DNA from: a virus | Direction: 5' to 3' (one strand) | Length of the DNA stretch: 50,390 nt | IMG/VR virus record: IMGVR_UViG_3300020215_000876 | Span: 1-50,390 of that record | In this document: in pieces, positions 7,867 to 31,412 of the stretch | How the letters are laid out: the number at the start of each line of letters is the position of its first letter | Position numbering within the stretch: position 1 is the stretch's first letter | Made by a program: the position numbers and the translations under genes | Notes under the pieces: model-generated | Databases searched by the model: none | Told to the model about the DNA's origin: nothing | What the model saw: only the letters and a program-made list of their open reading frames with translations

Positions 7867-8178
7867 ATGTCTGACCCTCGTGAAGTCCTGCGCCGCAAGC
7901 TGGCGGAACGGTACGCACCGATCGTCGCCGAGTTGGCCTTGAAGGTCGACAAACCCAACCCGGAGATGACGCTGGCAGACCTGCGGTGTGACCGCGCCGC
8001 GGACATCTATCTCGAGAAGGCGATGGACTTTCTGCTCGGCCCCTCGCGCCAGAGTCGGATCAATGAGGTGCAGGCGGCGCAGGCCCACGAACGCGCGTTA
8101 CGGGAGGACGAGGACGAAACCGTCAAGCGGCAGGCGCGTCAGGATGTCATCAAGCACCGCTCCGGGAGGACGCACTGA
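7867..8178 (+). CDS. Hypothetical protein upstream of Bet
   Basis: A 103-residue helical, charged protein (DPREVLRRKLAERYAPIVAE, then EDEDETVKRQARQ). The ATG at 7867 has AGAGGT at good spacing; the frame also opens at 7801, adding 22 low-complexity residues. It overlaps the Bet start by one base, so it is probably translated in step with the recombination genes. Function unknown. Confidence 0.7.
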   Translation: MSDPREVLRRKLAERYAPIVAELALKVDKPNPEMTLADLRCDRAADIYLEKAMDFLLGPSRQSRINEVQAAQAHERALREDEDETVKRQARQDVIKHRSGRTH

Positions 8179-9245
8179 TGTCTACCGTCGCTGAACAACC
8201 GGCCGCCACCACACCGAAGGATCAGCAGCTCCAGCAGCGGGCGCAAGTTGTCGACGCGCTGACGAAGCGCGGCATCGACGAATACCAGTGGCGCACGCTG
8301 ATGAACAGCCTGTTCCCCGGCGCGCGGTCCGAGTCCGTGCTGATGGTGATCGACTACTGCCACGCGCGGAAGCTCGACCCCATGAAGAAGCCGTGCCACA
8401 TCGTCCCGATGAGGGTGAAAGACCAGAAGACCGGCGAGTGGGAATGGCGCGATGTCGTGATGCCTGGCATCTACGAATACCGCACCACGGCGATGCGCAC
8501 CGGGAATTACCTGGGGCACTCCAAACCGGAGTACGGCCCGACGGTGGAGTGCTTTGGCGTCACCGCGCCTGAATGGTGCGAGATGACGATGTATCGACGC
8601 GCCACCAACGGCGATCGGATCGAATTCCCCGTACGCGTCTACTTCCGTGAGGCGTGCGCGACGAAGTTCGACAAGGAAGCCAAGAAAGACGTCGCCAACG
8701 ATCGGTGGAGCAAAGCGCCGATCCAAATGCTGACCAAAACGACAGAAGCCGCAGGCCTCCGCGAAGCCTTTCCAGACGAATTCGGTGGCGAAACGACCGC
8801 CGAAGAAATGGATGGCCGCGGTCACGACGTCGTCGACGTGCAGCCCGTCCCGGCCATCCAGGTGCCCCAGCGCCGTGCTGACGACGTCGCCCAGCCGTCG
8901 TCAGCACCGGTGATCGATGCCGAGCCGGTCAGCGAACCGACGCCGGCGCCGGCCCCGCAGGCCGCGTCGACGATCACGATCACCAAGGTCGAGAAGATGG
9001 AGTCGTCGAAGACGCGCGGCAAGACCGACGAGCAAGTCGCGAAGCTCGGCGCCCGGCGCGTCTTCTATTTCCTCGTCACGGATTCCACCGGCCGCGTCTG
9101 CTCGACCTGGTCGGAGTCGCTCTATCTGCAGTGCGGCAAGTTCGCCGACGACAAGACCCCGGTCGACATTACCGCGGAAACGGTCAGCGGGCAGCCGTGG
9201 CCCAAGCTGGTCGAGGTCAACGCCGCCAAGGGAGACGCGCAGTGA
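8178..9245 (+). CDS. bet: Phage recombination protein Bet/RecT (ssDNA annealing)
   Basis: A 355-residue protein whose first ~215 residues match the Bet/RecT annealase family: YCHARKLDPMKKPCHIVPM is the family hallmark, followed by MPGIYEYRTTAMRTG and the late WSKAPIQMLTKTTEAAGLREAFPD motif (cited in parts). Such proteins anneal complementary single strands during phage recombination. Residues ~216-260 form a Pro/Ala linker, and residues ~260-355 are an extra beta-rich domain (RRVFYFLVTDSTGRVCSTW) beyond the usual family length. The gene ends in a GTGA overlap with the exonuclease, giving the standard annealase-exonuclease pair. Confidence 0.92.
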   Translation: MSTVAEQPAATTPKDQQLQQRAQVVDALTKRGIDEYQWRTLMNSLFPGARSESVLMVIDYCHARKLDPMKKPCHIVPMRVKDQKTGEWEWRDVVMPGIYEYRTTAMRTGNYLGHSKPEYGPTVECFGVTAPEWCEMTMYRRATNGDRIEFPVRVYFREACATKFDKEAKKDVANDRWSKAPIQMLTKTTEAAGLREAFPDEFGGETTAEEMDGRGHDVVDVQPVPAIQVPQRRADDVAQPSSAPVIDAEPVSEPTPAPAPQAASTITITKVEKMESSKTRGKTDEQVAKLGARRVFYFLVTDSTGRVCSTWSESLYLQCGKFADDKTPVDITAETVSGQPWPKLVEVNAAKGDAQ

Positions 9246-9895
9246 TTGCGGCGATCGCCACGGACGGCCTGGCGTTCGACAAGGCGAGCCACACCTACAC
9301 CCTGCACGGTGTGGTGTTACCCAGCGTGACGCAAGTCATCCGGGACAACCGGCTGTCGTCGGACTTCGCCTTCGTGCGCGCCGCCGACATGGAAATCGCG
9401 CGCCAGCTCGGTCAAGCGGTGCATGTCGCCACGCACTATCACGATGAAGGCACGCTGGATGAGCGCACGGTCGACCCGGTCGTGATGCCGTATCTGCTCG
9501 CCTGGCGGCGGTTCGTGGCCGATCGGCGCGTGCGGTTCGTCGCGCTCGAGCAGCGCGTCGCCGACCCGATCTACCGGTTCTGCGGCACGGTCGATCGCAT
9601 CGCGGTCCTCGAAGACAACCCGACGCTGGGCGAGATCGTCGTCGATCTGAAGACCGGGAACCCCGCCGCGGCCGGGGCGAACTATCAAACCGCCGCGTAT
9701 GCGCACCTGGTCCAGAGCCTGCCCTGTGTCACGCGCGTCGGTGCGCGGTGGTCGGTGCAGCTGCATCCCGAGCGCGCCGTGCCCTACTCGGTGACGCCGT
9801 ACGCGAAGTTGACCGACTGGCGCATTTTCCGCGCCGCCCTGGAATTAACCCACGAACGTGCATCGCTGGGCGTGTCCTGGCGCGAGGCTGCGTAA
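9242..9895 (+). CDS. PD-(D/E)XK exonuclease (RecB/Cas4-like), Bet partner
   Basis: A 217-residue nuclease. The catalytic core is visible: CGTVDRI supplies the first acid, GEIVVDLKTG the D-x-K pair, and YQTAAYAHL the Q-x3-Y motif typical of RecB-family nucleases. The GTG start overlaps the Bet stop by four bases. It would resect double-stranded ends so that Bet can anneal the strands. The N-terminal part (SHTYTLHGVVLPSVTQVI) is common in phage exonucleases of this type. Confidence 0.85.
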   Translation: MIAAIATDGLAFDKASHTYTLHGVVLPSVTQVIRDNRLSSDFAFVRAADMEIARQLGQAVHVATHYHDEGTLDERTVDPVVMPYLLAWRRFVADRRVRFVALEQRVADPIYRFCGTVDRIAVLEDNPTLGEIVVDLKTGNPAAAGANYQTAAYAHLVQSLPCVTRVGARWSVQLHPERAVPYSVTPYAKLTDWRIFRAALELTHERASLGVSWREAA

Positions 9896-10743
9896 TGGCT
9901 GCTACCGAGATCATGGACCCCGTCGCCGATCCGTTGCCGGACCCGGTGCCAGATGTCGAAATTCTCGACGCGGAGCCGGTGCCGGTGGACGAGCCCGAGG
10001 AACAGTCGCTGGCTCGCACCTCCACCGACCTGGTGACGCGCGCGAAGTCCTTCGTCATCACAACGGCCGCACAGTTCGAGCTCGCCGGCGAGATGCTGAC
10101 GACGCTGAAGGACCAGAAGCGCCGGATCGTCGACTTCTTCGAAGCCGACATTCAGCGTGCGCACGCCGCATGGAAGGGTCTCACCACCAAGCGCGCCAGC
10201 TTCGTCGACCCGCTCGACGAGGCGATTTCGAACCTGAGCGCCAGATACGGGACGTTCGCGAAGGAAGCGCGCGAGGCTGCCGAGCGCGAACGCCGGCGAC
10301 TCGAAAAGGAAGCGCACGAGCGCGAGCAGGCCCGGCTGAAAGAGGAAGCCGACCGGCTCGCCGCCGAGGCCAAAGCGAAGGCGGACGCCGCGCTCGAGGC
10401 GAAGACACGCGAAGAAGCGCTCGCGCTCGAGGCCCAAGCCGAAGACCTGCAGAAGGCTGCCGAGTACACGAAGATCGAAGCCGCCACTGTCCCGGCGCCG
10501 GTCCTGCCGGCCCGCCCTGTCGTGACGCCACCGAAGGGCACCACCGTGAAAGCGAACTGGTCGCACGAGGTCACCGACCTGACGGCCCTGGTGAAAGCCG
10601 TCGCGGCCGGCACCGTCAGCATTCAGGCCATCTGCGCCAACGACACGTATCTCCGCCAGCGCGCCAAGGCCGACAAGGACACGGTGCAGATCCCTGGTGT
10701 GCGGTTCTACGACGCCGTCAGCGTGAGTCACCGGAGGAAGTGA
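9895..10743 (+). CDS. Coiled-coil phage protein of the recombination operon
   Basis: A 282-residue protein with an acidic, Pro-rich N-terminus, a helical segment (VTRAKSFVITTAAQFELAGE), and a long charged coiled coil at about 120-200 rich in EARE/RLEKEA repeats. A small C-terminal domain follows (VTDLTALVKAVAAGT). The ATG overlaps the exonuclease TAA (TAATG). Similar coiled-coil proteins accompany annealase and exonuclease genes in many phages; a helper role in DNA end processing is inference. Confidence 0.7.
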   Translation: MAATEIMDPVADPLPDPVPDVEILDAEPVPVDEPEEQSLARTSTDLVTRAKSFVITTAAQFELAGEMLTTLKDQKRRIVDFFEADIQRAHAAWKGLTTKRASFVDPLDEAISNLSARYGTFAKEAREAAERERRRLEKEAHEREQARLKEEADRLAAEAKAKADAALEAKTREEALALEAQAEDLQKAAEYTKIEAATVPAPVLPARPVVTPPKGTTVKANWSHEVTDLTALVKAVAAGTVSIQAICANDTYLRQRAKADKDTVQIPGVRFYDAVSVSHRRK

Positions 10744-11120
10744 TGCGCCGCGGTCACTACCTGTCGAACCAGATCGCCCGCTTCCGCGCGCCGCGGCCGA
10801 TCGAGACGCCCGACACCGACGCCGCCCAGGTCTACCGCCAGCAATGGCGGAAGCGTGACGGCAGCATGGTCCGGACGTTCGACGTGCTCGCCCTCGACGA
10901 CAAGATGGCCCAGGAGTTGGGCGGCATTCGGCTGGCGGAGCGGTATCGGCAGAGTCCGGTGGACTGGCAGCTCGTGTCGAGCATCGTGCGTGAGCACTCG
11001 ACCTCGAGCGTGATCGCCGTCCTGAGCACTGAAGACCCCGATGAAACCAAGGTGCGCGAAGAAGGTTTCTGCCGGCTGACGGCTGGCGATCCCAATCCGT
11101 TCGAGGTCGAACTGTCGTGA
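10743..11120 (+). CDS. Hypothetical protein
   Basis: A 125-residue protein starting in a TGATG overlap. It contains RQQWRKRDGSMVRTFDVLAL and a C-terminal REEGFCRLTAGDPNPFEVEL. No known motif is seen. It is tightly packed in the recombination operon, so it probably acts in early DNA metabolism. Confidence 0.65.
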   Translation: MRRGHYLSNQIARFRAPRPIETPDTDAAQVYRQQWRKRDGSMVRTFDVLALDDKMAQELGGIRLAERYRQSPVDWQLVSSIVREHSTSSVIAVLSTEDPDETKVREEGFCRLTAGDPNPFEVELS

Positions 11121-11593
11121 TCCGCCGTCGCTCCGTGAAGCGCCCGAAGCTCGGCATCAACTACGCCGCGATTGCGGCCGCCGGTGGGATCGGGAAAGGC
11201 CCATCGACCCCGCTCGTCAAGGGCTGGAAGAAGGCGGCCTTCGAGAAGGCGCTGGCAGAGGCTTACGAAATCGTCAACCGACGCGATCGCAATCGGTCCC
11301 GCGTCACCGGCGTGAACCTGTTCCCGAGCACGGACAACCTCAAGGCCCTGCGGGAGCACAACCATCTGGGCAAGCGGTCGACGCACCCATCGGAGGAAAC
11401 CAACCCCGCGAACATCTTCCTGGTCTCGCACTACGAGCACCAGTTCCTGACGTCCGGTGAGTTGGTGACGCACGGCACCGACGCCAATCGTGAATTGAAG
11501 TTCTCGTGGAACAGGCACTTAGTTAAAGCCGGCAAGGAACCGTTCCGCATTCCCGCGGTGAACCTGTGGAAGCCACGAAAGGCGGTGGCGTAG
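11117..11593 (+). CDS. Hypothetical protein, weakly HNH-like
   Basis: A 158-residue basic protein starting with GTG in a four-base overlap. The segment LREHNHLGKRSTHPSEETNP with IFLVSHYEHQFL loosely resembles an HNH core with His and Asn residues, but the DxHH signature is absent. The C-terminal part (NRELKFSWNRHLVKAGK) is strongly basic and could bind nucleic acid. Function is not established. Confidence 0.6.
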   Translation: MIRRRSVKRPKLGINYAAIAAAGGIGKGPSTPLVKGWKKAAFEKALAEAYEIVNRRDRNRSRVTGVNLFPSTDNLKALREHNHLGKRSTHPSEETNPANIFLVSHYEHQFLTSGELVTHGTDANRELKFSWNRHLVKAGKEPFRIPAVNLWKPRKAVA

Positions 11594-16479: not shown

Positions 16480-16683
16480 ATGGAGAACTGCAGGTATTGC
16501 GGCGAGCCGGCCGAGGGCAACTTCTCGATCCATCGTGACGGGTTCGGTGTCGGTCCGGAAGTGCCGCTGTGCGATGCCTGCGGCGGCCATGAGGAGCCGT
16601 CAGCCTTCGACATCTGGGAGCAGATCGCGCAACCCAGCGATCGCGAGTTCGCGCACAAACCAGTCGGTGAGGTCGAATCGTGA
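16480..16683 (+). CDS. Small zinc-ribbon protein
   Basis: A 67-residue protein with two Cys pairs, CRYCGEPA and CDACGGHE, making a zinc ribbon. It starts directly after the previous stop and overlaps the methyltransferase GTG by four bases. It may act as a small adaptor; no function is known. Confidence 0.7.
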   Translation: MENCRYCGEPAEGNFSIHRDGFGVGPEVPLCDACGGHEEPSAFDIWEQIAQPSDREFAHKPVGEVES

Positions 16684-17945
16684 TTCACCACGGCGATCTG
16701 TTCACCGTGCTACCGGCGGTTCCGGCTGATTACTACGACGCCTGTGTCACCGATCCGCCCTATGGCATCGGCTTCATGGGGAAAGAGTGGGACACGTTCA
16801 AGCCGGGCGCCGTGAAGCAGGCGCACCGTCTGGTGAAGGCCGAGCCGATTGTCTCGGTCAACCCGAACATCAACGGTCGGCGGAGGTCGCCAGCAATTTC
16901 TCCAAGCCAAGTCGAATATGACTACACCGTCGAAGGATTGCGCGGTTTTCAACACTGGACCGAGCAATGGGCGCGCCAGGTGTTCAGGGTGCTCAAACCT
17001 GGCGCCTACATCGTTGTGTGCTGCGCGCCGCGGTCCTATCACCGCATGGCATGCGGGCTCGAGGACGCCGGCTTCGTCATCCGAGACAAGTTCTCGTGGC
17101 TGTTCGGCTCAGGGTTCCCCAAGAATCTGAATCTCGGAGACGGGCGCGGCACGGCGCTGAAACCAGCGCACGAGCCGATCGCGCTGGCGTGGAAGCCGTT
17201 CAAGGGCAGCATCACCGCTAACGTCGCGAAGCACGGCACAGGGGCGCTGAACATCGACGCGTGCCGGTTGGAACCCGGCGATGACGGTGATCGGACGGGC
17301 GAACCCAGCGCCGAACGAGGCTACACGGATAGCGGCTCGACAGACTTCGCACCGACACCGGGACCGCGCGGCGGTTCACCGCTGGGCCGCTGGCCCGCCA
17401 ACGTCATCATTGACGACGTCGCCGCGGCCGCGATCGATGAACAGACCGGCGAACTGGTCAGCGGCGCCAACCCGACCCGGCGCAGCGCGGATAAGTTCCG
17501 CGACGCGTACGGTGCCTTTAAGGGTCAGGAAGAGTGCGACGCCGCCCGCGGGCTCGACATTGGCGGTGCGTCACGCTTCTACTACGTAGCCAAGCCCTCG
17601 CGCGAAGAGCGCGACATGGGCTGCTACGACCTGACGCCGCGTCAGCGAGACGAATCGCGCAAGGAAGGCAATCCCGGCGGCGATAACCCGCGCAATCGTG
17701 GGCTGCAACCGCGCGGCAACTTTCACCCCACCGTTAAGCCGATCGCGCTGATGCGCTATCTGGTGCGCCTGGTCACGCCGCCAGGCGGCCGCGTGCTCGA
17801 TCCGTTCGGTGGCAGCGGCACTACGGCGTGCGCATGCGTCTACGAACAGCGCGAGTGGGACGTCATCGAGAAGGAAGCCGAATACATCGAGTTGATCAAG
17901 CGGCGCGTTCATGCTGTCGCGCCGCTGTTTACGGAGGCGGTCTAA
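16680..17945 (+). CDS. DNA N6/N4 methyltransferase (beta class)
   Basis: A 421-residue DNA methylase. Motif IV, VTDPPYGIGF, is near the N-terminus (~residue 22), and motif I, LDPFGGSGTT, is near the C-terminus (~375), the order of beta-class N-4/N-6 methylases. YHRMACGLEDAGFVIRD and FHPTVKPIALMRYLVR are further family segments. The region from ~150 to 320 would hold the target-recognition part. It modifies phage DNA, most likely to evade host restriction. No cognate restriction enzyme is seen nearby. Confidence 0.9.
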   Translation: MIHHGDLFTVLPAVPADYYDACVTDPPYGIGFMGKEWDTFKPGAVKQAHRLVKAEPIVSVNPNINGRRRSPAISPSQVEYDYTVEGLRGFQHWTEQWARQVFRVLKPGAYIVVCCAPRSYHRMACGLEDAGFVIRDKFSWLFGSGFPKNLNLGDGRGTALKPAHEPIALAWKPFKGSITANVAKHGTGALNIDACRLEPGDDGDRTGEPSAERGYTDSGSTDFAPTPGPRGGSPLGRWPANVIIDDVAAAAIDEQTGELVSGANPTRRSADKFRDAYGAFKGQEECDAARGLDIGGASRFYYVAKPSREERDMGCYDLTPRQRDESRKEGNPGGDNPRNRGLQPRGNFHPTVKPIALMRYLVRLVTPPGGRVLDPFGGSGTTACACVYEQREWDVIEKEAEYIELIKRRVHAVAPLFTEAV

Positions 17946-17983: not shown

Positions 17984-19141
17984 ATGGCGGCCTACTACAA
18001 CGAGTTCGATCGCTATGCCGCGGCCTGGCTGCGCGAACTCATCAAGGCGGGGTTGATCGCTGATGGTGAAGTCGATGAGCGCTCAATTGTCGATGTTCGA
18101 GCCGACGACATCCGAGGCTTCACCCAATGCCACTTCTTCGCCGGCATTGGTGGATGGTCGTACGCCCTCCGACTCTCTGGTTGGGCCGATGAGCGGCACG
18201 TCTGGACCGGCAGTTGTCCCTGTCAACCGTTTAGCGCCGCGGGGAAAGGCGATGGCGCCGCCGATTCGCGCCACCTTTGGCCTACGTGGTTCGAGCTCAT
18301 ACGCGAGTGCCGCCCTCCAGTCGTCTTTGGCGAACAGGTTGCGAGCGCGGATGGACTTGGATGGCTCGATCGTGTTTCGACTGACATGGAAGCAACGGGT
18401 TACGCCGTCGCATCGGCGGATCTGTGCGCTGCGAGCGTCGGCGCATTCCACATTCGACAGCGGCTGTACTTCGTGGCCGACACCGAACGCGGGGCCACAG
18501 AACGACGGCGATTCGACCTGGCGGCAGCGGCGCGAAGTGCTCAAAGCGCAACACCGGAACGGCAACGGGTTCGGCCTGACGCTGGGGATGGCCGCGCAGT
18601 TATCGGCCTGGCCGACTCCGAATACGCCGAGCGGCGGCAGGTCCGTGTCCATCGAGAAGATGGACGCGACGGGGCGGATGGTAGACGGTCGCAAGCATAC
18701 GGCGAGCCTGGAACACGCGGCGAAGTTTGCAGCGTGGCGATCGCCGAACGCCTCAGATCAAAAGATGCGCTGCACCAGCGAGGCGATGTATCAGCGGAGA
18801 CGGCAAGCCAATCGGCAAGTGACGCTGGAGGAGCAAGCCTGTCTCGCGGCGTGGCAGTCACCGACGAGCGGGGATGCGAAGTCTCGGACGTACCAGTACG
18901 ACAACCACGACAAGACGAAGCCGCGGTTATCGAACGAGGGGCAGGTTTCTGGCGCACCGCAGATTGGATTCCCTGCGCCGACGGCAAATGGCGGCCAGTT
19001 GAACCCGGCACATTCCCGCTGGCTCATGGGATACCCGGCCGTGTGGGACGACTGCGCGGTTATGGCAATGCCATCGTCCCGCAGGTCGCCCAGGCGTTCA
19101 TCGAAGCCTATCTCGACGCCCGAGGACAAGTAGATGCGTGA
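17984..19141 (+). CDS. DNA (cytosine-5) methyltransferase
   Basis: A 385-residue C5 methylase. Motif I is FAGIGGWSYALRLSGW, the motif IV catalytic Cys lies in SCPCQPFSAAGKG, motif VI is GEQVASADG (usual ENV replaced by EQV), motif VIII is RQRLYFV, and motif X is GYGNAIVPQVAQAF. An N-terminal helix (FDRYAAAWLRELIKAG) precedes motif I. The target-recognition region (~165-320) is Arg/Glu/Ala-rich and contains LADS-type repeats. The same DNA is open in the +1 frame and encodes a second protein-like sequence, so the composition of this region may reflect dual coding. Confidence 0.92.
   Translation: MAAYYNEFDRYAAAWLRELIKAGLIADGEVDERSIVDVRADDIRGFTQCHFFAGIGGWSYALRLSGWADERHVWTGSCPCQPFSAAGKGDGAADSRHLWPTWFELIRECRPPVVFGEQVASADGLGWLDRVSTDMEATGYAVASADLCAASVGAFHIRQRLYFVADTERGATERRRFDLAAAARSAQSATPERQRVRPDAGDGRAVIGLADSEYAERRQVRVHREDGRDGADGRRSQAYGEPGTRGEVCSVAIAERLRSKDALHQRGDVSAETASQSASDAGGASLSRGVAVTDERGCEVSDVPVRQPRQDEAAVIERGAGFWRTADWIPCADGKWRPVEPGTFPLAHGIPGRVGRLRGYGNAIVPQVAQAFIEAYLDARGQVDA
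18075..19133 (+). CDS. WPTP-repeat protein nested in +1 frame of the C5 methylase
   Basis: A 352-residue frame (ATG 18075; ATG 18063 also possible) lying wholly inside the methylase gene. It begins MSAQLSMFEPTTSEASP and carries MDLDGSIVFRLTWKQRVTPS, ICALRASAHSTFDSG, repeated WPTPN/WRSPN/WQSPT motifs and a C-terminal LNPAHSRWLMGYP. I recognise this as a recurrent sequence type in phage genomes rather than a random shadow. Each WPTP in this frame is the same DNA as LADS or a similar string in the methylase frame. Its function is unknown. Confidence 0.65.
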   Translation: MSAQLSMFEPTTSEASPNATSSPALVDGRTPSDSLVGPMSGTSGPAVVPVNRLAPRGKAMAPPIRATFGLRGSSSYASAALQSSLANRLRARMDLDGSIVFRLTWKQRVTPSHRRICALRASAHSTFDSGCTSWPTPNAGPQNDGDSTWRQRREVLKAQHRNGNGFGLTLGMAAQLSAWPTPNTPSGGRSVSIEKMDATGRMVDGRKHTASLEHAAKFAAWRSPNASDQKMRCTSEAMYQRRRQANRQVTLEEQACLAAWQSPTSGDAKSRTYQYDNHDKTKPRLSNEGQVSGAPQIGFPAPTANGGQLNPAHSRWLMGYPAVWDDCAVMAMPSSRRSPRRSSKPISTPEDK

Positions 19142-20621: not shown

Positions 20622-20794
20622 TGACTTTCGGGTTTGCCGGTCAAGACATGGAATGTCCGCATGGGCCTTGGGGAGACAAAACGCACGGTGATGATCCGTG
20701 TTCCCTGGGCTGGGCCGTGGCGATCCTGATTCTGTTGAGCTTGGTGTGGTTGGTGTGGGGCATCGTCGCCGCGTGGATACACGTCGCGCAGTAG
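20576..20794 (+). CDS. Zinc-ribbon plus transmembrane small protein
   Basis: A 72-residue protein starting at the ATG at 20576, 46 nt inside the previous gene. The N-terminus has a Cys pair (KCKQCGTD) and a later CPHG and DPC. A C-terminal membrane helix follows (WAVAILILLSLVWLVWGIVA). A cytoplasmic metal-binding head on a membrane anchor is the simplest reading. Confidence 0.6.
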   Translation: MGSAKCKQCGTDKVLMTFGFAGQDMECPHGPWGDKTHGDDPCSLGWAVAILILLSLVWLVWGIVAAWIHVAQ

Positions 20795-20799
20795 ACGGC

Positions 20800-21330
20800 A
20801 TGAGGATTGGCTACGCCGACCCGCCATACATCGGTTGCGCGCACCTATACGCCGATCAGCCGACGTATGCCGGGGAGGTGGATCACGCGCAGTTGATTGA
20901 CCGTCTCCAGCGAGAGTTCGACGGCTGGGTGTTGCACGCCGCTGCAACACCGACCTCCATGGCGACGATCGCGGCGCTGGTGGAACACACCGGAGCCAGA
21001 TGGTGCGCGTGGGTGAAGGGGTTCGCCGCGTTCAAGAAGAACGTCAGTGTGGCGTACGCGTGGGAGCCGGTCATTATCAAAGCGGCTCGCAAGCCAGTCG
21101 TCAGCGGTCGCATCGTGATGCGCGATTGGATTCAGGAGTCCATCACCCTCCAGCGCGGGTTGACCGGCGCCAAGCCGGAGCGCGTCTGCCATTGGGCATT
21201 CGAGCTTGTCGGGGCCGAGCCCTCGGATGAATTGATTGACCTGTATCCGGGCACCGGCGCCGTGTCCCGCGCGTGGCGGACATGGCGACAGCAGCCAGAA
21301 CTGCAAATTTCCTCAATGGGTGAGCGATGA
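20800..21330 (+). CDS. Small N6-adenine DNA methyltransferase-like protein
   Basis: A 176-residue protein with motif IV (YADPPYIGCA) at the N-terminus and a motif I-like DLYPGTGAVSRAW near the C-terminus. The order IV then I and the short length fit compact phage adenine methylases. The middle (WVLHAAATPTSMATIAALVE, then AWVKGFAAFK) resembles proteins of that group. It is the third methylase in the window. Catalytic activity is inferred from the DPPY motif. Confidence 0.78.
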   Translation: MRIGYADPPYIGCAHLYADQPTYAGEVDHAQLIDRLQREFDGWVLHAAATPTSMATIAALVEHTGARWCAWVKGFAAFKKNVSVAYAWEPVIIKAARKPVVSGRIVMRDWIQESITLQRGLTGAKPERVCHWAFELVGAEPSDELIDLYPGTGAVSRAWRTWRQQPELQISSMGER

Positions 21331-25360: not shown

Positions 25361-25373
25361 GGGAGATTGTAGG
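25361..25373. repeat. 13-mer GGGAGATTGTAGG between divergent starts, copy 1
   Basis: It fills the 15-bp space between the divergent nuclease-like and HerA-like genes. The second copy (27495-27507) fills the gap between another divergent pair. On the + strand it supplies GGGAG as a ribosome-binding site; on the - strand it contains TACAAT, a -10-like box about 8 nt before the ATG. Confidence 0.7.
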
Positions 25374-27199
25374 TGAAAGCATTCGAGATCGGGCCCGGCC
25401 TGAAGTGCGACGCGGATCGCCTCGTTGCCAGTCGGCTGTTGGTACAGGCGAATTCCGGTGGCGGCAAGACACGCACGCTGCGCCGGCTGCTCGAGCAAAG
25501 CCACGGCAAGCTGCAGCACCTGGTCATCGACCCGGAAGGCGAGTACCACACCCTCCGGGAGAAGTTCGATTACGTGCTGGCAGCGCCAACAGGCGGCGAC
25601 ACCGTGGCGCACCCGCGAACGGCCGCCATGCTCGCCGAGCGGTTGCTGCAGTTGAACGTCTCAGCCATCCTCGACATCTACGAGCTCAACCCAGATCAGC
25701 GCGTGTTGTTCGTGCAGCGGTTCCTGGACGCGCTGGTGAACGCACCGCGGGACCTGTGGCATCCGGCGCTGATCGTCCTGGACGAGGCGCACGTCTACGC
25801 GCCGGAAGGGAAGGAGAACGCGAGCACCGCGGCCGTGAAGGCGATGGCGTCGCGCGGCCGCAAGCGCGGCTTCTGTCTGGTACCGGCTACGCAACGACTC
25901 GCGAAGTTGTCGAAGGACGTCGCCGCGGAGTGCAACAACAAGCTGATTGGTCGCTGCACGCTCGACGTCGACATCAAGCGCGCCGCCGAAGAACTCGGCT
26001 TCACCACGAACGAACAGAAGCAGGGCCTGCGGCAGCTCGAGCCAGGTCAGTTCTACGCCTACGGGCCGGCGTTCGACGTCACCACGCCGATGTTGGTGCG
26101 CGTTGGGCCGGTGAAGTCCCATCATCCAGAGCCAGGGCAAAAGGCCGCACCGGTGCCGGCGCCGACCGAGAAGGTCAAAAAGGTGCTGCAACAGTTGGCC
26201 GACCTGCCGGCAGAAGCCGAGGAGCGTGAGCGTTCCATTTCGGAGCTGCGAAAAGACAACGCCGACAAGGCGCGTCGCATCAAGCAGTTGGAGGCGGAAC
26301 GCGCAAAAGCGACGCCGAATATTCCCGTAAATATTCCGGCTGCGAGGCCGGTCCCGGCGCTGACCGATGCCGATCGCAAGTCAATCGAGAAGCTCGTCGC
26401 CGCTTATCAATCGTCGGTGAATGGCGCACGAGAGGCGTTGGCCGGCGCGGAACAGCGCATTCGGGACGGCGTTCGAGTGGCGCTCGACGAGCATCTGGCG
26501 TCGTTACGCGCCGCTACGGCTGACATCCTCACCGAAATAGAACGACGTGCCGACCAACCGAGCGTCAAGAAGTTGCTCGAGAAGTTGAACGGATTGGCGG
26601 TTGTTCCGCGAAGCGTTGTACCAGCGCCGATCCGCCAAGTGACCGCGCCGCGCGGGTCCAACAATCGCACAGGTTCCACGTCGATCGCCCCGGTCCAAGG
26701 CCCCAGGCCAGATGCAGCGCAAGGTCTTCAGGAGCCAGAACAACGCATCCTCGATTCCCTCGCCTGGTGGAAGGCCGCCGGAATCGAGCGACCGACGCGG
26801 GTACAGGTCGCATTCGGTGCGCGCTATACGCTGAACGGCCACGTCAATAACACGTTGGGAGGCCTGCGGACCAAGGGCCTGATCGATTACCCGGACCGCG
26901 GCGCCGTGTCGTTGACGGAGGCCGGCGCCGCGTTGGCGAACACTCCAAGCGTTGCCGCCGATCGCGATGAGTTGATCCGCCGTGCCCTCGAAGTCCTGCG
27001 AGAGGAGCCGCAGCAACGCCTGTTCCGCGCCTTGGTCAGCGCCGAAGCCGAGATGCTGACCCGCGAAGAACTCGCCCACGCCTGTAACTACACGCTCAAC
27101 GGGCACGTCAACAACACGCTCGGGTCCTTACGCAGCATTGGGTTGATCGATTATCCGCGCCGCGGATTCGTCGCCCTCTCGGAAATGTTCAATGTGTAA
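25373..27199 (+). CDS. HerA-like ATPase with two C-terminal winged-helix repeats
   Basis: A 608-residue HerA/FtsK-type ATPase. Walker A is QANSGGGKTRT (~29), Walker B is LIVLDEAHVY (~140), followed by ASRGRKRGFCLVPATQRLAK as sensor region. After ~260 come a coiled coil (EERERSISELRKDNADKARR) and a Pro-rich linker. The C-terminus holds two near-identical segments, YTLNGHVNNTLGGLRTKGLI (~483) and YTLNGHVNNTLGSLRSIGLI (~570), each probably a winged helix. HerA proteins form hexameric rings and team with nucleases; the divergent PD-(D/E)XK-like gene is the natural partner here. It starts with GTG. Confidence 0.85.
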   Translation: MKAFEIGPGLKCDADRLVASRLLVQANSGGGKTRTLRRLLEQSHGKLQHLVIDPEGEYHTLREKFDYVLAAPTGGDTVAHPRTAAMLAERLLQLNVSAILDIYELNPDQRVLFVQRFLDALVNAPRDLWHPALIVLDEAHVYAPEGKENASTAAVKAMASRGRKRGFCLVPATQRLAKLSKDVAAECNNKLIGRCTLDVDIKRAAEELGFTTNEQKQGLRQLEPGQFYAYGPAFDVTTPMLVRVGPVKSHHPEPGQKAAPVPAPTEKVKKVLQQLADLPAEAEERERSISELRKDNADKARRIKQLEAERAKATPNIPVNIPAARPVPALTDADRKSIEKLVAAYQSSVNGAREALAGAEQRIRDGVRVALDEHLASLRAATADILTEIERRADQPSVKKLLEKLNGLAVVPRSVVPAPIRQVTAPRGSNNRTGSTSIAPVQGPRPDAAQGLQEPEQRILDSLAWWKAAGIERPTRVQVAFGARYTLNGHVNNTLGGLRTKGLIDYPDRGAVSLTEAGAALANTPSVAADRDELIRRALEVLREEPQQRLFRALVSAEAEMLTREELAHACNYTLNGHVNNTLGSLRSIGLIDYPRRGFVALSEMFNV

Positions 27200-29187: not shown

Positions 29188-29709
29188 ATGAAGCGGCGGA
29201 CGCGTCGTTGGTCGCAGGTGCAGGGTGAGGCGAAGCGCCTCGCGTCGATCGGTTGCACGCCGAAGGAGATCGCTGAGCAGCTCGACGTTGACAAGTCGAC
29301 GGTGACGCGCTGGATCGCGAAGAAGAAGCTCACTTTGTCGTCGAACGTGGTGGACATGCCGCCGGCGAGCACGATGAAGAAGCCCGCTGAGTGGGCGAAA
29401 GCGATCCGCGACGAATACGCGCTCGACGAGACCGACGATCAACTCGTGACGATGGCGGAGGCGGCCGCCGCGATCGCGAATGACTCGTCTGCGAAACGGA
29501 GCGAACGCCTCAATGCGATGCGCACGTTCCGCGGCATCGTTGGCCAGCTCCGGCTGGTGGCGCGCAGTGCCGCCGCGTCAGCTACGGAAGAACAGCAGCA
29601 GCCGGTCGCGGTGAAGGCCACGCCGGCGCCGCCACCGAAGGCAAAGAATCCGCCTGTGCGTCGCAGGTCAACCGTAGACCCGCGAACGCATCTGAGGGCG
29701 GTGAAGTGA
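29188..29709 (+). CDS. Terminase small subunit
   Basis: A 173-residue protein with an N-terminal HTH (IGCTPKEIAEQLDVDKSTVT, then RWIAKKKL) to recognise phage DNA, a helical middle for oligomerisation (AEAAAAIANDSSAKRSERLN), and a basic, Pro-rich tail. It precedes TerL with a four-base overlap. TerS recognises the packaging site and stimulates TerL. Family sequence similarity is always low for TerS, so the call rests on HTH, length and position. Confidence 0.8.
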   Translation: MKRRTRRWSQVQGEAKRLASIGCTPKEIAEQLDVDKSTVTRWIAKKKLTLSSNVVDMPPASTMKKPAEWAKAIRDEYALDETDDQLVTMAEAAAAIANDSSAKRSERLNAMRTFRGIVGQLRLVARSAAASATEEQQQPVAVKATPAPPPKAKNPPVRRRSTVDPRTHLRAVK

Positions 29710-31412
29710 TTCTCACTGTGCCGATCGACAAGGTGCTCTATCCGACGCTTGGGCCGCAGGTCTGCGCGTTCATGGAAGAGAACTTGTGCTTCGGACCTGG
29801 TGATCTGCGCGGACAGCCGCTGGTGCTCGATGACGAGCGGCGAGGTCTGATCTACAGCCTCTACGAGATCGAGCCGCAGTACATCAAAGACGGTCGACGA
29901 CGATTGAAGAGTCCGCGCGCGGGCCGACGTCGTTTTCAGCGTGCGGGCCTGTCGCTCGCGAAGGGTAAAGCGAAGACCGAGCTTGCCGCATTGATCGCGG
30001 CCTGCGAGCTACACCCTGATGCACCGGTGCGCTGCACCGGCTGGACGAAAGGCGGCGAGCCGATCGGTGGCCCGGTCGACGATCCATACATCCCGATGTT
30101 CGCCGTGAGCGAGGAACAGTCCGACGAGCTCGCGTTCGGGGCGCTGCGCGTGATCCTCGAGTTGAGCCATTTGAAGGACGACTTCGACATCGGGCTCGCG
30201 CGGATCATGCGCTTGAAGGGTGATGGTAAAGCGGAATCGCTCGCGCAGAATCCAGACGCTAGCGATGGCGCCCGCACGACGTTCACCGTTTTCGACGAGA
30301 CGCACCGCTTCACGATGAGGCGGTTCATCGAGACCCACTCGACGATGTTGAACAACCTGCCGAAGCGCAAGAAGGCGAATGCGTGGGCCTTGGAAATTAC
30401 GACTGCGCCAGAGCCTGGCGCGGGATCGGTCGCTGAAGCGACGATGAATTATGCGCAGCAGATTGCTGACGGCAAGATCAAGAACGCCTCGTTCTTCTAC
30501 TTCCACATGCAGGCCGGCGATTACCACGACTTGAAAACGCCGGAAGGTCGGCGCGCCGCGGTGATCGAGGCCTCCGGCGCAGCCGCGGAGTGGCGCGACA
30601 TCGACGGCATTGTGTCGCTCTACGATGCGCCCGATTGGGACAAGCAGTACTGGGAACGCGTGTGGTGCAACCGGATGGTGCAGGGCTCCACGCAGGCGTT
30701 TGACGTGCAGCACGTCAAGACGCTGCAGGTAGTCCGGTCAATCGGGTCACGGAAGGAACTGATCACGCTCGGCTTCGACGGCGCGATGTTTCATGACAGC
30801 ACGGGCCTTGTGGCGACACACATCAAGACCGGATTCCAGTGGAAGGCCGGATTGTGGGAATGCCCGCCAGGCGGCGACAAGTTTGATCCGCCATGGCAGG
30901 TGCCGGAAAACGAAGTGGACGAAACAGTAAAGCGGTTGTTCTCGACCTACAACGTCTGGCGCATGTATGCGGACCCGCCCTACTGGGCGTCGTGGATCTC
31001 GAAGTGGGTCGGTGACTTCGGGAAGGACCGCGTGGTCGAGTGGTTCACGAATCGCCGACAGCCGATGGCGGCCGCGCTGAAGACGTACGAGACCGCCCTG
31101 AAGACCGGCGCGCTCTCGCACGATGGCGATCCTGATCTGCTCAGGCACATCGGGAACGCGCGCAAGCAAGAGATCCCAGGCTGGAAGGACGAGAAAGGCC
31201 AGTCGTTCTGGCTGATTCGCAAAGAGCATCCGGAATCGCCAAAGAAGATCGACTTGGCGATGGCATCGGTTCTGAGCTGGGAAGCGCGGAAGGATGCGCT
31301 TGCGGCTGGGTTGTTAAAAGTTCGTAGCGGTGAACGAGGGAGGGCACGTGTTTGGACGCCTGAAGGATTTCGGGACATCGATCCGGGACCGCAGCCGGCG
31401 GCTCCGGCGTAA
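29706..31412 (+). CDS. terL: Terminase large subunit (TerL)
   Basis: A 568-residue packaging motor, starting with GTG. The ATPase domain has a divergent Walker A (GLSLAKGKAKTELAAL, ~80-95) and a Walker B FTVFDETHRF (~197). The RNase H-like nuclease domain shows LGFDGAMFHDSTGLV (~355), a second acid in MYADPPYWASW and a third in KKIDLAMASVLSWEAR. The order and length are normal for HK97-type terminases. It pumps DNA into the prohead and cuts it. The next gene starts inside its 3' end. Confidence 0.93.
   Translation: MILTVPIDKVLYPTLGPQVCAFMEENLCFGPGDLRGQPLVLDDERRGLIYSLYEIEPQYIKDGRRRLKSPRAGRRRFQRAGLSLAKGKAKTELAALIAACELHPDAPVRCTGWTKGGEPIGGPVDDPYIPMFAVSEEQSDELAFGALRVILELSHLKDDFDIGLARIMRLKGDGKAESLAQNPDASDGARTTFTVFDETHRFTMRRFIETHSTMLNNLPKRKKANAWALEITTAPEPGAGSVAEATMNYAQQIADGKIKNASFFYFHMQAGDYHDLKTPEGRRAAVIEASGAAAEWRDIDGIVSLYDAPDWDKQYWERVWCNRMVQGSTQAFDVQHVKTLQVVRSIGSRKELITLGFDGAMFHDSTGLVATHIKTGFQWKAGLWECPPGGDKFDPPWQVPENEVDETVKRLFSTYNVWRMYADPPYWASWISKWVGDFGKDRVVEWFTNRRQPMAAALKTYETALKTGALSHDGDPDLLRHIGNARKQEIPGWKDEKGQSFWLIRKEHPESPKKIDLAMASVLSWEARKDALAAGLLKVRSGERGRARVWTPEGFRDIDPGPQPAAPA

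What the first reader, a model, noticed from the sequence alone, without database searches (positions are those of the whole stretch)
17984..19141. Complete gene nested in the +1 frame of a C5 methyltransferase
The methylase frame has motifs I, IV, VI, VIII and X, so it is real. The +1 frame from 18075 to 19133 is open for 352 codons and reads as a recurrent phage sequence type: MSAQLSMFEPTT start, DLDGSIVFRLTWK, WPTPN-type repeats and NPAHSRWLMGYP. The same DNA gives LADS in one frame and WPTP in the other, mainly in the methylase target-recognition region. Dual coding over more than 1 kb is rare and could link the methylase specificity region to a second function.
Basis: partly seen in the sequence, partly recalled or inferred. 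Interest (0 to 1): 0.75.

Follow-up and report, generated by a model that had tools for sequence, protein, structure and literature searches.

The report
Methylase gene hiding its second subunit
One stretch of phage DNA is read in two frames to make two proteins, a DNA-methylating enzyme and what is most likely its missing DNA-recognition partner, and the same double reading is kept in hundreds of related phage and bacterial sequences.

Summary
M (17984-19141) is a C5 cytosine methyltransferase. N (ATG 18075, stop codon 19131-19133, 352 aa) lies wholly inside it in the +1 frame.

Chance and codon bias are excluded by homologues. In 63 loci under 70% alike, window included, 12 stops occur in the +1 frame where 232 are expected; the +2 control is 779 against 713. 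An ATG with a Shine-Dalgarno match precedes N in 79% of 129 loci against 22% expected. Both frames show similar purifying selection.

N is probably not a second function. M has motifs I, IV, VI, VIII and X but no motif IX; N ends in one, linked by profile to single-chain relatives and through them to M.HhaI. Among 447 loci an IX-type motif precedes motif X in the +1 frame only (225) or the M frame only (88), never both; 33 had neither, 101 were unresolved. The stretch between VIII and IX, disordered in the model of M, carries PTP-type units in N and often differs between near-identical cores.

Best reading: M and N are catalytic and recognition subunits of one heterodimeric m5C methyltransferase, resembling M.EcoHK31I. 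The biochemistry is untested.

The parts
17984..19141 (+). M: C5 cytosine DNA methyltransferase, catalytic (large) subunit, motifs I, IV, VI, VIII and X; no motif IX in this frame
   Evidence: PF00145 1e-12, phrog_363 1.6e-82; AF2 residues 1-180 mostly pLDDT above 80 (blocks 63-98), Foldseek best hit M.HhaI 2i9k, 169 columns, rmsd 2.4
18075..19133 (+). N: nested +1-frame ORF, 352 aa, MSAQLSMFEPTT...; putative recognition/motif IX subunit
   Evidence: open frame; phrog_1008/phrog_31772; conservation, selection and start-site tests
18065..18069 (+). GGTGA, Shine-Dalgarno-like match 5 nt before the N start codon
   Evidence: sequence; ATG with SD in 0.79 of 129 loci against 0.22 under synonymous shuffles
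18137..18169 (+). M motif I FAGIGGWSYAL
   Evidence: position; motif name recalled
18209..18244 (+). M motif IV GSCPCQPFSAAG, catalytic Cys (role recalled)
   Evidence: P79 C80 Q81 P82 S84 invariant in 30 sequences
18320..18346 (+). M motif VI VVFGEQVAS (GEQV for the usual ENV, recalled)
   Evidence: G116 E117 Q118 V119 invariant in 30 sequences
18452..18481 (+). M motif VIII IRQRLYFVAD; the same DNA runs into the first WPTP unit of N
19055..19084 (+). M motif X RGYGNAIVPQ
   Evidence: low confidence in the M model (residues 344-361 pLDDT under 50)
18291..18446 (+). N helix plus beta-hairpin (SSSYASAALQSSLANRL ... SIVFRLTWKQRVTPSHRRICALRASAH), the best-modelled part of N
   Evidence: AF2 helix 76-92, strands 101-109 and 115-123; ten-residue blocks 81-120 pLDDT 88, 73, 90, 92; codon constraint of M residues 101-166 is 1.7-1.8 times expected
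18474..18875 (+). four PTP-type units of N (WPTP 18474, WPTP 18609, WRSP 18735, WQSP 18852), variable region; M frame here is predicted disordered
   Evidence: AF2 of M residues 203-293 pLDDT under 50
18999..19046 (+). N motif IX, LNPAHSRWLMGYPAVW
   Evidence: profile match to the in-frame motif IX of single-chain relatives, which aligns to RKLHPRECARVMGYPDSY of M.HhaI 1svu

Best explanation
The locus encodes one m5C DNA methyltransferase as two proteins on the same DNA. M, read in the outer frame, is the large catalytic subunit (AdoMet binding, catalytic Cys, motif X). N, started by its own ATG and ribosome-binding site 91 bases inside M and read in the +1 frame, is the small-domain subunit: a helix/hairpin, a variable array of PTP-type units that sets the DNA target, and motif IX. 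The two would assemble on DNA into an active heterodimer that marks phage DNA, most likely against host restriction. Shown here: the two frames, their joint conservation and selection, the conserved start signal, that M lacks and N has motif IX, and that the variable stretch differs between otherwise near-identical genes. Inferred: that N is made, that it binds M, that the PTP units contact DNA, the target sequence, and the anti-restriction role.
For: +1 stops 12 against 231.9 expected in 63 loci, +2 control 779 against 712.5; by source, window 0 against 4.0, fetched by N 2 against 52.2 (14 loci), fetched by M 6 against 93.5 (29), phage records 4 against 82.9 (19), and bacterial genome contigs 9 against 254.2 (78). 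2 against 462.4 in 178 distinct loci with motif IX in +1. N identity 0.40 against 0.25 under synonymous shuffles on 60 random pairs, mean z 7.1 (drawn from 163 loci without +1 stops; the +2 control also rose, mean z 4.8, as shared wobble bases would cause). Codon constraint 1.12 upstream of N, 1.7-2.0 over N's conserved blocks. dN/dS 0.25 and 0.41 in N, 0.24 and 0.40 in M on 21 close pairs. Start: ATG with SD 0.79 against 0.22. Motif IX in N, by hhalign to single-chain M relatives, E 1.2e-5 (probability 81) for N and 2.5e-8 (95) for the Paenibacillus-type N, joined to M.HhaI. Motif IX in +1 only 225, frame 0 only 88, both 0, neither 33, unresolved 101, of 447. M's VIII-IX region disordered in AF2. 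Variable region: of 291 pairs with cores at least 90% alike, 86 have +1 VIII-IX identity under 50% counted over the shorter one, 62 of these with lengths within 20%; they fall in 8 of 21 clusters. No standalone N: 80 of 80 loci and 59 of 60 loci (some show one place twice) overlap M in the same register; the 60th had no N by this test. Precedent M.EcoHK31I: large polypeptide I-VIII and X, motif IX in the small one (passages of PMC3404938).
Against: No expression data. The AF2 model of N alone is poor (mean pLDDT 59.8, pTM 0.30), and Foldseek finds no match for it (best E 0.72); no complex was modelled. Codon constraint over N's first third is weak (1.17 and 1.26 over M residues 41-70 and 71-100). 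In one family (Fushigi-type) motif IX is in the M frame yet the +1 ORF is largely kept, so motif IX alone does not explain N; this fits a recognition role but could fit another. The link of N's motif to M.HhaI is indirect and short (21 columns), and in most M.HhaI entries the best aligned stretch stopped before motif IX; the alignment printed through it is 1svu. Some relatives break the pattern: 9 of 63 loci have 1-2 stops in the tested stretch and 7 of 78 genome loci have 1-3; L082, left out, has five stops after codon 170. For M.EcoHK31I the cited paper places the predicted TRD in the large polypeptide.
Confidence: 0.8

Rival explanations
1. N is a real, translated protein with a separate job (for example an anti-restriction or regulatory protein) that merely shares the methylase DNA.
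For: No biochemistry ties N to M; N has no structural match; the +1 ORF persists in large part even where motif IX is in the M frame.
Against: N ends in a C5-methyltransferase motif IX that M lacks, and in the 313 loci where the motif was found it is in one frame only; not seen without M in the loci examined; its variable part lies in the methylase's specificity stretch.
Confidence: 0.13
2. The +1 frame is used by programmed frameshifting from M, giving an M-N fusion, and not by an internal start.
For: In ShiLan-type relatives the PTP units pass from the +1 frame into the M frame along the gene; single-chain forms with IX in frame 0 exist.
Against: Conserved ATG plus SD just inside the gene; +1 stops are common just before that point (often codons 18-29) and nearly absent after it. 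No slippery site was looked for.
Confidence: 0.04
3. The open +1 frame is a by-product of GC content and codon bias and encodes nothing.
For: For the window alone, only about 6 stops are expected.
Against: 12 against 232 stops with each gene's codon usage and M sequence held fixed; low-GC relatives agree (L111, 48% GC, 0 against 5.0; L101, 52% GC, 0 against 6.0; L112, 49% GC, 2 against 8.0); SD and ATG enrichment and dN/dS below 1 in N.
Confidence: 0.02

Closest known systems
M.EcoHK31I (YGGCCR), two-polypeptide C5 methyltransferase (Lee, Kam and Shaw 1995, cited in PMC3404938)
   Same: Large polypeptide with motifs I-VIII and X, motif IX only in a small polypeptide (passages). I recall, from no call, that the small one is also read from an alternative frame inside the large gene.
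   Different: The cited paper puts the predicted TRD in its large polypeptide; here the PTP-type variable units are in the nested frame. This is a family found in phages and bacterial genomes.
M.AquI, two-polypeptide C5 methyltransferase
   Same: C5 enzyme split into two chains.
   Different: [quoted passage not shown] here motif X stays in the large chain and the second frame is nested.
M.HhaI, single-chain C5 methyltransferase
   Same: Catalytic domain fold of M; motif IX of the single-chain relatives aligns to RKLHPRECARVMGYPDSY.
   Different: All motifs in one chain and one frame.
[quoted passage not shown] part 1 of 6 and passages seen)
   Same: A second protein read out of frame within a phage DNA methylase gene.
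   Different: That one is an inserted homing endonuclease in gp65; here the second frame runs through the methylase itself and carries methylase motif IX.
Lambda Rz/Rz1 embedded genes (passages of PMC8785237)
   Same: Phage genes nested in two frames.
   Different: Unrelated function; shorter and joint action in lysis are recalled.

Membership tests
C5 cytosine DNA methyltransferase (M) | PF00145 above its curated cut-off | tested here: met
   48.6 bits against 22; NCBIfam TIGR00675 below its cut-off, 35.2 against 100.65
C5 cytosine DNA methyltransferase (M) | PCQ catalytic motif IV and motifs I, VI, VIII, X | tested here: met
   motif VI reads GEQV, not ENV
C5 cytosine DNA methyltransferase (M) | motif IX in the same chain | tested here: not met
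   in the window and 225 of 447 loci the LMG.P-type motif before X is only in the +1 frame
C5 cytosine DNA methyltransferase (M) | methylation activity | not testable with these tools
   needs an assay
Two-polypeptide C5 methyltransferase of the M.EcoHK31I kind | large chain with I-VIII and X, small chain with IX | tested here: met
   by sequence only (motifs II, III, V, VII not placed one by one); definition
Two-polypeptide C5 methyltransferase of the M.EcoHK31I kind | small chain read from another frame inside the large gene (recalled feature) | tested here: met
Two-polypeptide C5 methyltransferase of the M.EcoHK31I kind | sequence similarity to EcoHK31I alpha and beta | not tested
   I had no EcoHK31I sequence; its paper is not held
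Two-polypeptide C5 methyltransferase of the M.EcoHK31I kind | both chains needed for methylation | not testable with these tools
   needs an assay
Same-strand +1 overlapping genes | both frames under purifying selection | tested here: met
   N 0.25 [0.20-0.31] and 0.41 [0.28-0.55]; M 0.24 [0.19-0.34] and 0.40 [0.31-0.50], 21 close pairs; N 0.34/0.58 and M 0.32/0.55 on 56 more distant pairs

The most novel reading that the evidence does not exclude
A very large class of phage and prophage m5C methyltransferases writes its catalytic subunit and its DNA-recognition subunit over each other in two frames, and changes target by exchanging short cassettes that recode the variable region in both frames at once, so that catalysis and specificity cannot be separated by recombination. 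Motif IX has moved between the two frames at least once, giving two-chain and single-chain forms that share the nested recognition ORF.
Probability: 0.5. Interest if true: 0.85.

Novelty: new variant of a known kind. Interest (0 to 1): 0.72.

Why it matters
Embedded genes are described as rare in tailed phages, and annotators are advised to use extreme caution in recording them (passages of PMC8785237). Here is one over 1 kb with constraint measured in hundreds of loci, from phages of Proteobacteria, Paenibacillus, Mycobacterium and Microbacterium hosts and from many bacterial genomes, inside a well-studied enzyme family. In the phage records opened, gene callers usually took one frame, so one subunit is missing, and predictions of methylase specificity made from M alone would read what is probably the wrong, disordered region. 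Anyone cloning such a methylase with a recoded M would silently destroy N. It also gives a natural test of how two proteins share one DNA while specificity keeps changing.

Tried and rejected
Single-gene statistics were too weak to settle the matter, so I moved to homologues. Pfam, NCBIfam and PADLOC gave no family for N; PHROGs calls N 'DNA methyltransferase', a label I did not take as evidence. A PDB sequence search with the N profile found nothing, and the N structure model gave no usable fold match. The idea that N exists as a standalone gene elsewhere was tested and not supported in the loci examined. My first motif regex missed the window's own family and was replaced. A first dN/dS run held some disrupted loci and was redone on clean ones; in that run 21 and 209 'stop' changes remain, which I take to come from scoring single differences against one sequence's context. 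A first measure of variable-region exchange divided by the longer sequence and so mixed deletions with exchange (135 of 291 pairs); it was redone over the shorter one (86 of 291). In L017/L070, with identical M cores, the variable part is 186 against 76 residues, so that pair shows loss and replacement of units together. Literature searches for nested or overlapping methylase genes listed no description of this family; the library lacks most subscription papers, and I opened few of the listed papers, so this does not show that none exists. 'Mte8' gave one paper with a passing mention. Passages of PMC5723332, PMC8008677, PMC3439449, PMC6456624 and PMC4574080 added nothing decisive.

Rows dropped before counts: for, 11 loci set aside (L016, L058, L063, L067, L075, L076, L081, L082, L087, L088, L091: partial, frame-disrupted, short or broken) and 6 truncated ones, leaving 97 of 114, then 63 under 70% identity. 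For one search, 109 of 447 loci were unresolved (12 without motif IV, 97 without a IX/X pair), and the 178 'distinct' loci differ in the 60 residues after motif IV but are not cut at 70%. For one search, 223 of the 225 IX+1 loci were clean. For one search, 199 of the 225 had a recognised motif VIII. L001-L016 and L115-L194 were fetched by N, so they are biased to keep N; loci fetched by M show the same. One search kept the best 80 of 188. Searches scored at most 7 candidates a genome in nearly all rows shown, so their tallies may be low.

Full report
What is there. The ORF M at 17984-19141 (385 aa) is a C5 cytosine methyltransferase (PF00145 1e-12, phrog_363 1.6e-82). A second ORF, N, runs in the +1 frame from ATG 18075 to the stop at 19131-19133 (352 aa). 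N lies wholly inside M, ending 8 bases before M does. The record is an IMG/VR virus contig of 50,390 bases with terminase, portal, head protease and tape-measure matches, so it is a tailed phage or prophage.

Is it more than chance? In the window alone, barely decisive: shuffling synonymous codons within M gives an open run this long in 0.07% of trials, other nulls in 0.18% and 0.24%. Homologues decide it. tblastn finds N in 180 and M in 345 of 50,697 phage records. In the loci fetched from IMG/VR and phage records, +1 stops sit mainly in the first 37 or so codons of M and at its very end, and seldom between. In 63 loci with M under 70% identical, the window's own included, 12 stops are seen against 231.9 expected when each gene's own synonymous codons are shuffled; 54 of 63 have none; the +2 frame behaves as expected, 779 against 712.5. 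Split by how they were fetched: by N 2 against 52.2 (14 loci), by M 6 against 93.5 (29), phage records 4 against 82.9 (19); 78 bacterial genome loci give 9 against 254.2. On a wider set of 178 distinct loci with motif IX in the +1 frame the figure is 2 against 462.4.

Is N translated and selected? An ATG with a Shine-Dalgarno match of at least 4 nt between the last upstream +1 stop and M codon 45 is present in 79% of 129 loci against 22% under synonymous shuffles; an ATG of any kind in 97% (125 of 129) against 64%. In the window this is GGTGA at 18065-18069 and ATG at 18075. Codons of M are conserved beyond codon usage by 1.12 upstream of N (M residues 1-28), only 1.09-1.26 over residues 29-100, then 1.7-1.8 over 101-166, 1.4-1.5 over the variable stretch and 1.9-2.0 over 316-365, where N is most conserved. 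Counting changes by their effect in both frames, dN/dS is 0.25 and 0.41 for N and 0.24 and 0.40 for M on 21 close pairs, and 0.34/0.58 against 0.32/0.55 on 56 more distant ones. These are simple counts with bootstrap over pairs, not a full OLGenie run.

What is N? M's motifs I, IV, VI, VIII and X are in place, but motif IX is absent from its frame. N's C-terminus, LNPAHSRWLMGYPAVW, is that motif. Four distant phage methylases made this visible. Paenibacillus phage Arcticfreeze and Microbacterium phage R1 have the same nested +1 ORF ending in LNP.W.E.LMGFP.GW; mycobacteriophages ShiLan (gp70) and Fushigi (gp80) have such a motif in the methylase frame, before motif X. Profiles agree. N against the Paenibacillus-type nested ORFs: probability 99.9, E 3.5e-33, 250 columns. 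N against Fushigi-type methylases: only 21 columns, the motif IX, probability 81, E 1.2e-5; the Paenibacillus-type nested ORF against the same: probability 95, E 2.5e-8. M against the same: E 2.5e-24, aligned well over motifs IV-VIII. The Fushigi-type profile aligns its motif IX with RKLHPRECARVMGYPDSY of M.HhaI in entry 1svu; in most M.HhaI entries the best stretch stopped before it. Of 447 loci, an LMG.P-type motif precedes motif X in the +1 frame only in 225, in the M frame only in 88, in both in none, in neither in 33; 101 could not be resolved. So wherever the motif was found, it was in one frame or the other.

The variable region. Between motifs VIII and IX the M frame is rich in Gly and Arg (15% and 11%) and is modelled as disordered (residues 203-293 pLDDT under 50), while N carries zero to five PTP-type units (199 loci). 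The stretch is 43-252 codons long and changes fast: of 291 pairs of loci with M cores at least 90% identical, 86 have +1-frame identity under 50% there, counted over the shorter one, 62 of them with lengths within 20%; they fall in 8 of 21 clusters, for example L333/L338 with core 0.91 and variable part 0.30. Pairs share members, so these are not independent events. This is how target-recognition regions behave, and it is why I place recognition in N. The Fushigi-type enzymes fit: motif IX is in M there, yet the +1 frame with hairpin and LPTP units has no stop in the second half of IV-VIII (0 against 135.7 expected in 78 single-chain loci, ShiLan types included), 45 against 110 in the first three quarters of VIII-IX, and then a stop nine codons before motif IX in all 40 loci printed; over the whole stretch it is 163 against 404.5 (profile match of N to these ORFs probability 97, E 2.4e-10).

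Structure. AF2 models M's catalytic domain mostly well and Foldseek puts it on M.HhaI over 169 columns at 2.4 angstrom; the rest of M is not confidently modelled. N alone models poorly (pLDDT 59.8) apart from a helix and hairpin (residues 76-123) and the motif IX helices (311-331, blocks 85 and 77), and has no fold match. A partner that folds only with M would look like this, but so would other things.

Spread. The genome collection gave 80 loci (best of 188) from Proteobacteria, Verrucomicrobia, Planctomycetes and others; all 80 carry M and N in the same +1 register. Searching whole genomes with the N profile, 22 of 295 genomes in the family of a Citrobacter locus and 26 of 297 in that of a Brucella locus have matches; of 60 loci taken, some showing one place twice, 59 overlap M in the same register, a few in short remnants, and one showed no N. 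No standalone N was seen.

What is known. [quoted passage not shown] the title it cites says two proteins are required. I recall that the small one is nested in another frame, but no call shows it and the paper is not held. Both frames have been annotated in a few phages, K1H, PhiXhv-5 and Arcticfreeze, and PHROGs holds N in its own families, matched by 88 of 88 N sequences. In five records the N frame, or part of it, is annotated and the catalytic part of M is not. My searches listed no paper describing the family. I therefore call it a new variant of a known kind: it works like M.EcoHK31I, but membership by sequence is untested.

Limits. No expression, binding or methylation data; the target site is unknown; phylogenetic dependence is reduced by the 70% cut, not removed; a minority of loci break the pattern (9 of 63; 7 of 78; L082), and some contigs have apparent frameshifts.

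Noticed in passing
16680-17945: An N4/N6 DNA methylase gene (PF01555, 6e-30) lies directly upstream of M, so two different base-modifying enzymes sit side by side.
   Followed up: partly
20698-21330: An ORF with a DPPY motif (read from the ORF list; meaning recalled) without any Pfam or PHROGs match may be a third methylase-like gene.
   Followed up: partly
9748-10743: Exonuclease match (phrog_10477, weakly a RecE-like family) in one of three long mutually overlapping ORFs (9748-10743 +, 9858-11120 +, 9784-11160 -); the other two have no Pfam or PHROGs match. A RecT gene lies at 8178-9245.
   Followed up: partly
25373-27199: A 608-aa ORF matches a terminase large subunit family (phrog_2666) and HerA/DUF87 although a separate terminase lies at 29706-31412.
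   Followed up: no
1141-2802: Large serine recombinase (PF00239, PF07508, zinc ribbon) on the minus strand, suggesting a temperate phage.
   Followed up: no
L110:1571-2929: In Klebsiella virus KpV2811 the N frame runs on without a stop through the annotated endonuclease VII gene, a possible N-nuclease fusion.
   Followed up: no
L114:1616-3037: In Edwardsiella phage eiAU the N frame runs on into the annotated N-6-adenine methyltransferase.
   Followed up: no
L199, L202, L212: In ShiLan gp70-type methylases the PTP units start in the +1 frame and continue in the methylase frame after a stop, as if the variable region had been shifted between frames.
   Followed up: partly
L490-L502: A divergent branch in the family of the Brucella locus has very long +1 ORFs (368-679 aa) overlapping M; the two read (L490, L494) have WPTP units and LNPLFVE.LMGWP.
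   Followed up: partly
L094, L095, L098, L102, L103: Public phage records that annotate the N frame or part of it, some as 'methyltransferase', and leave the catalytic part of M unannotated.
   Followed up: yes
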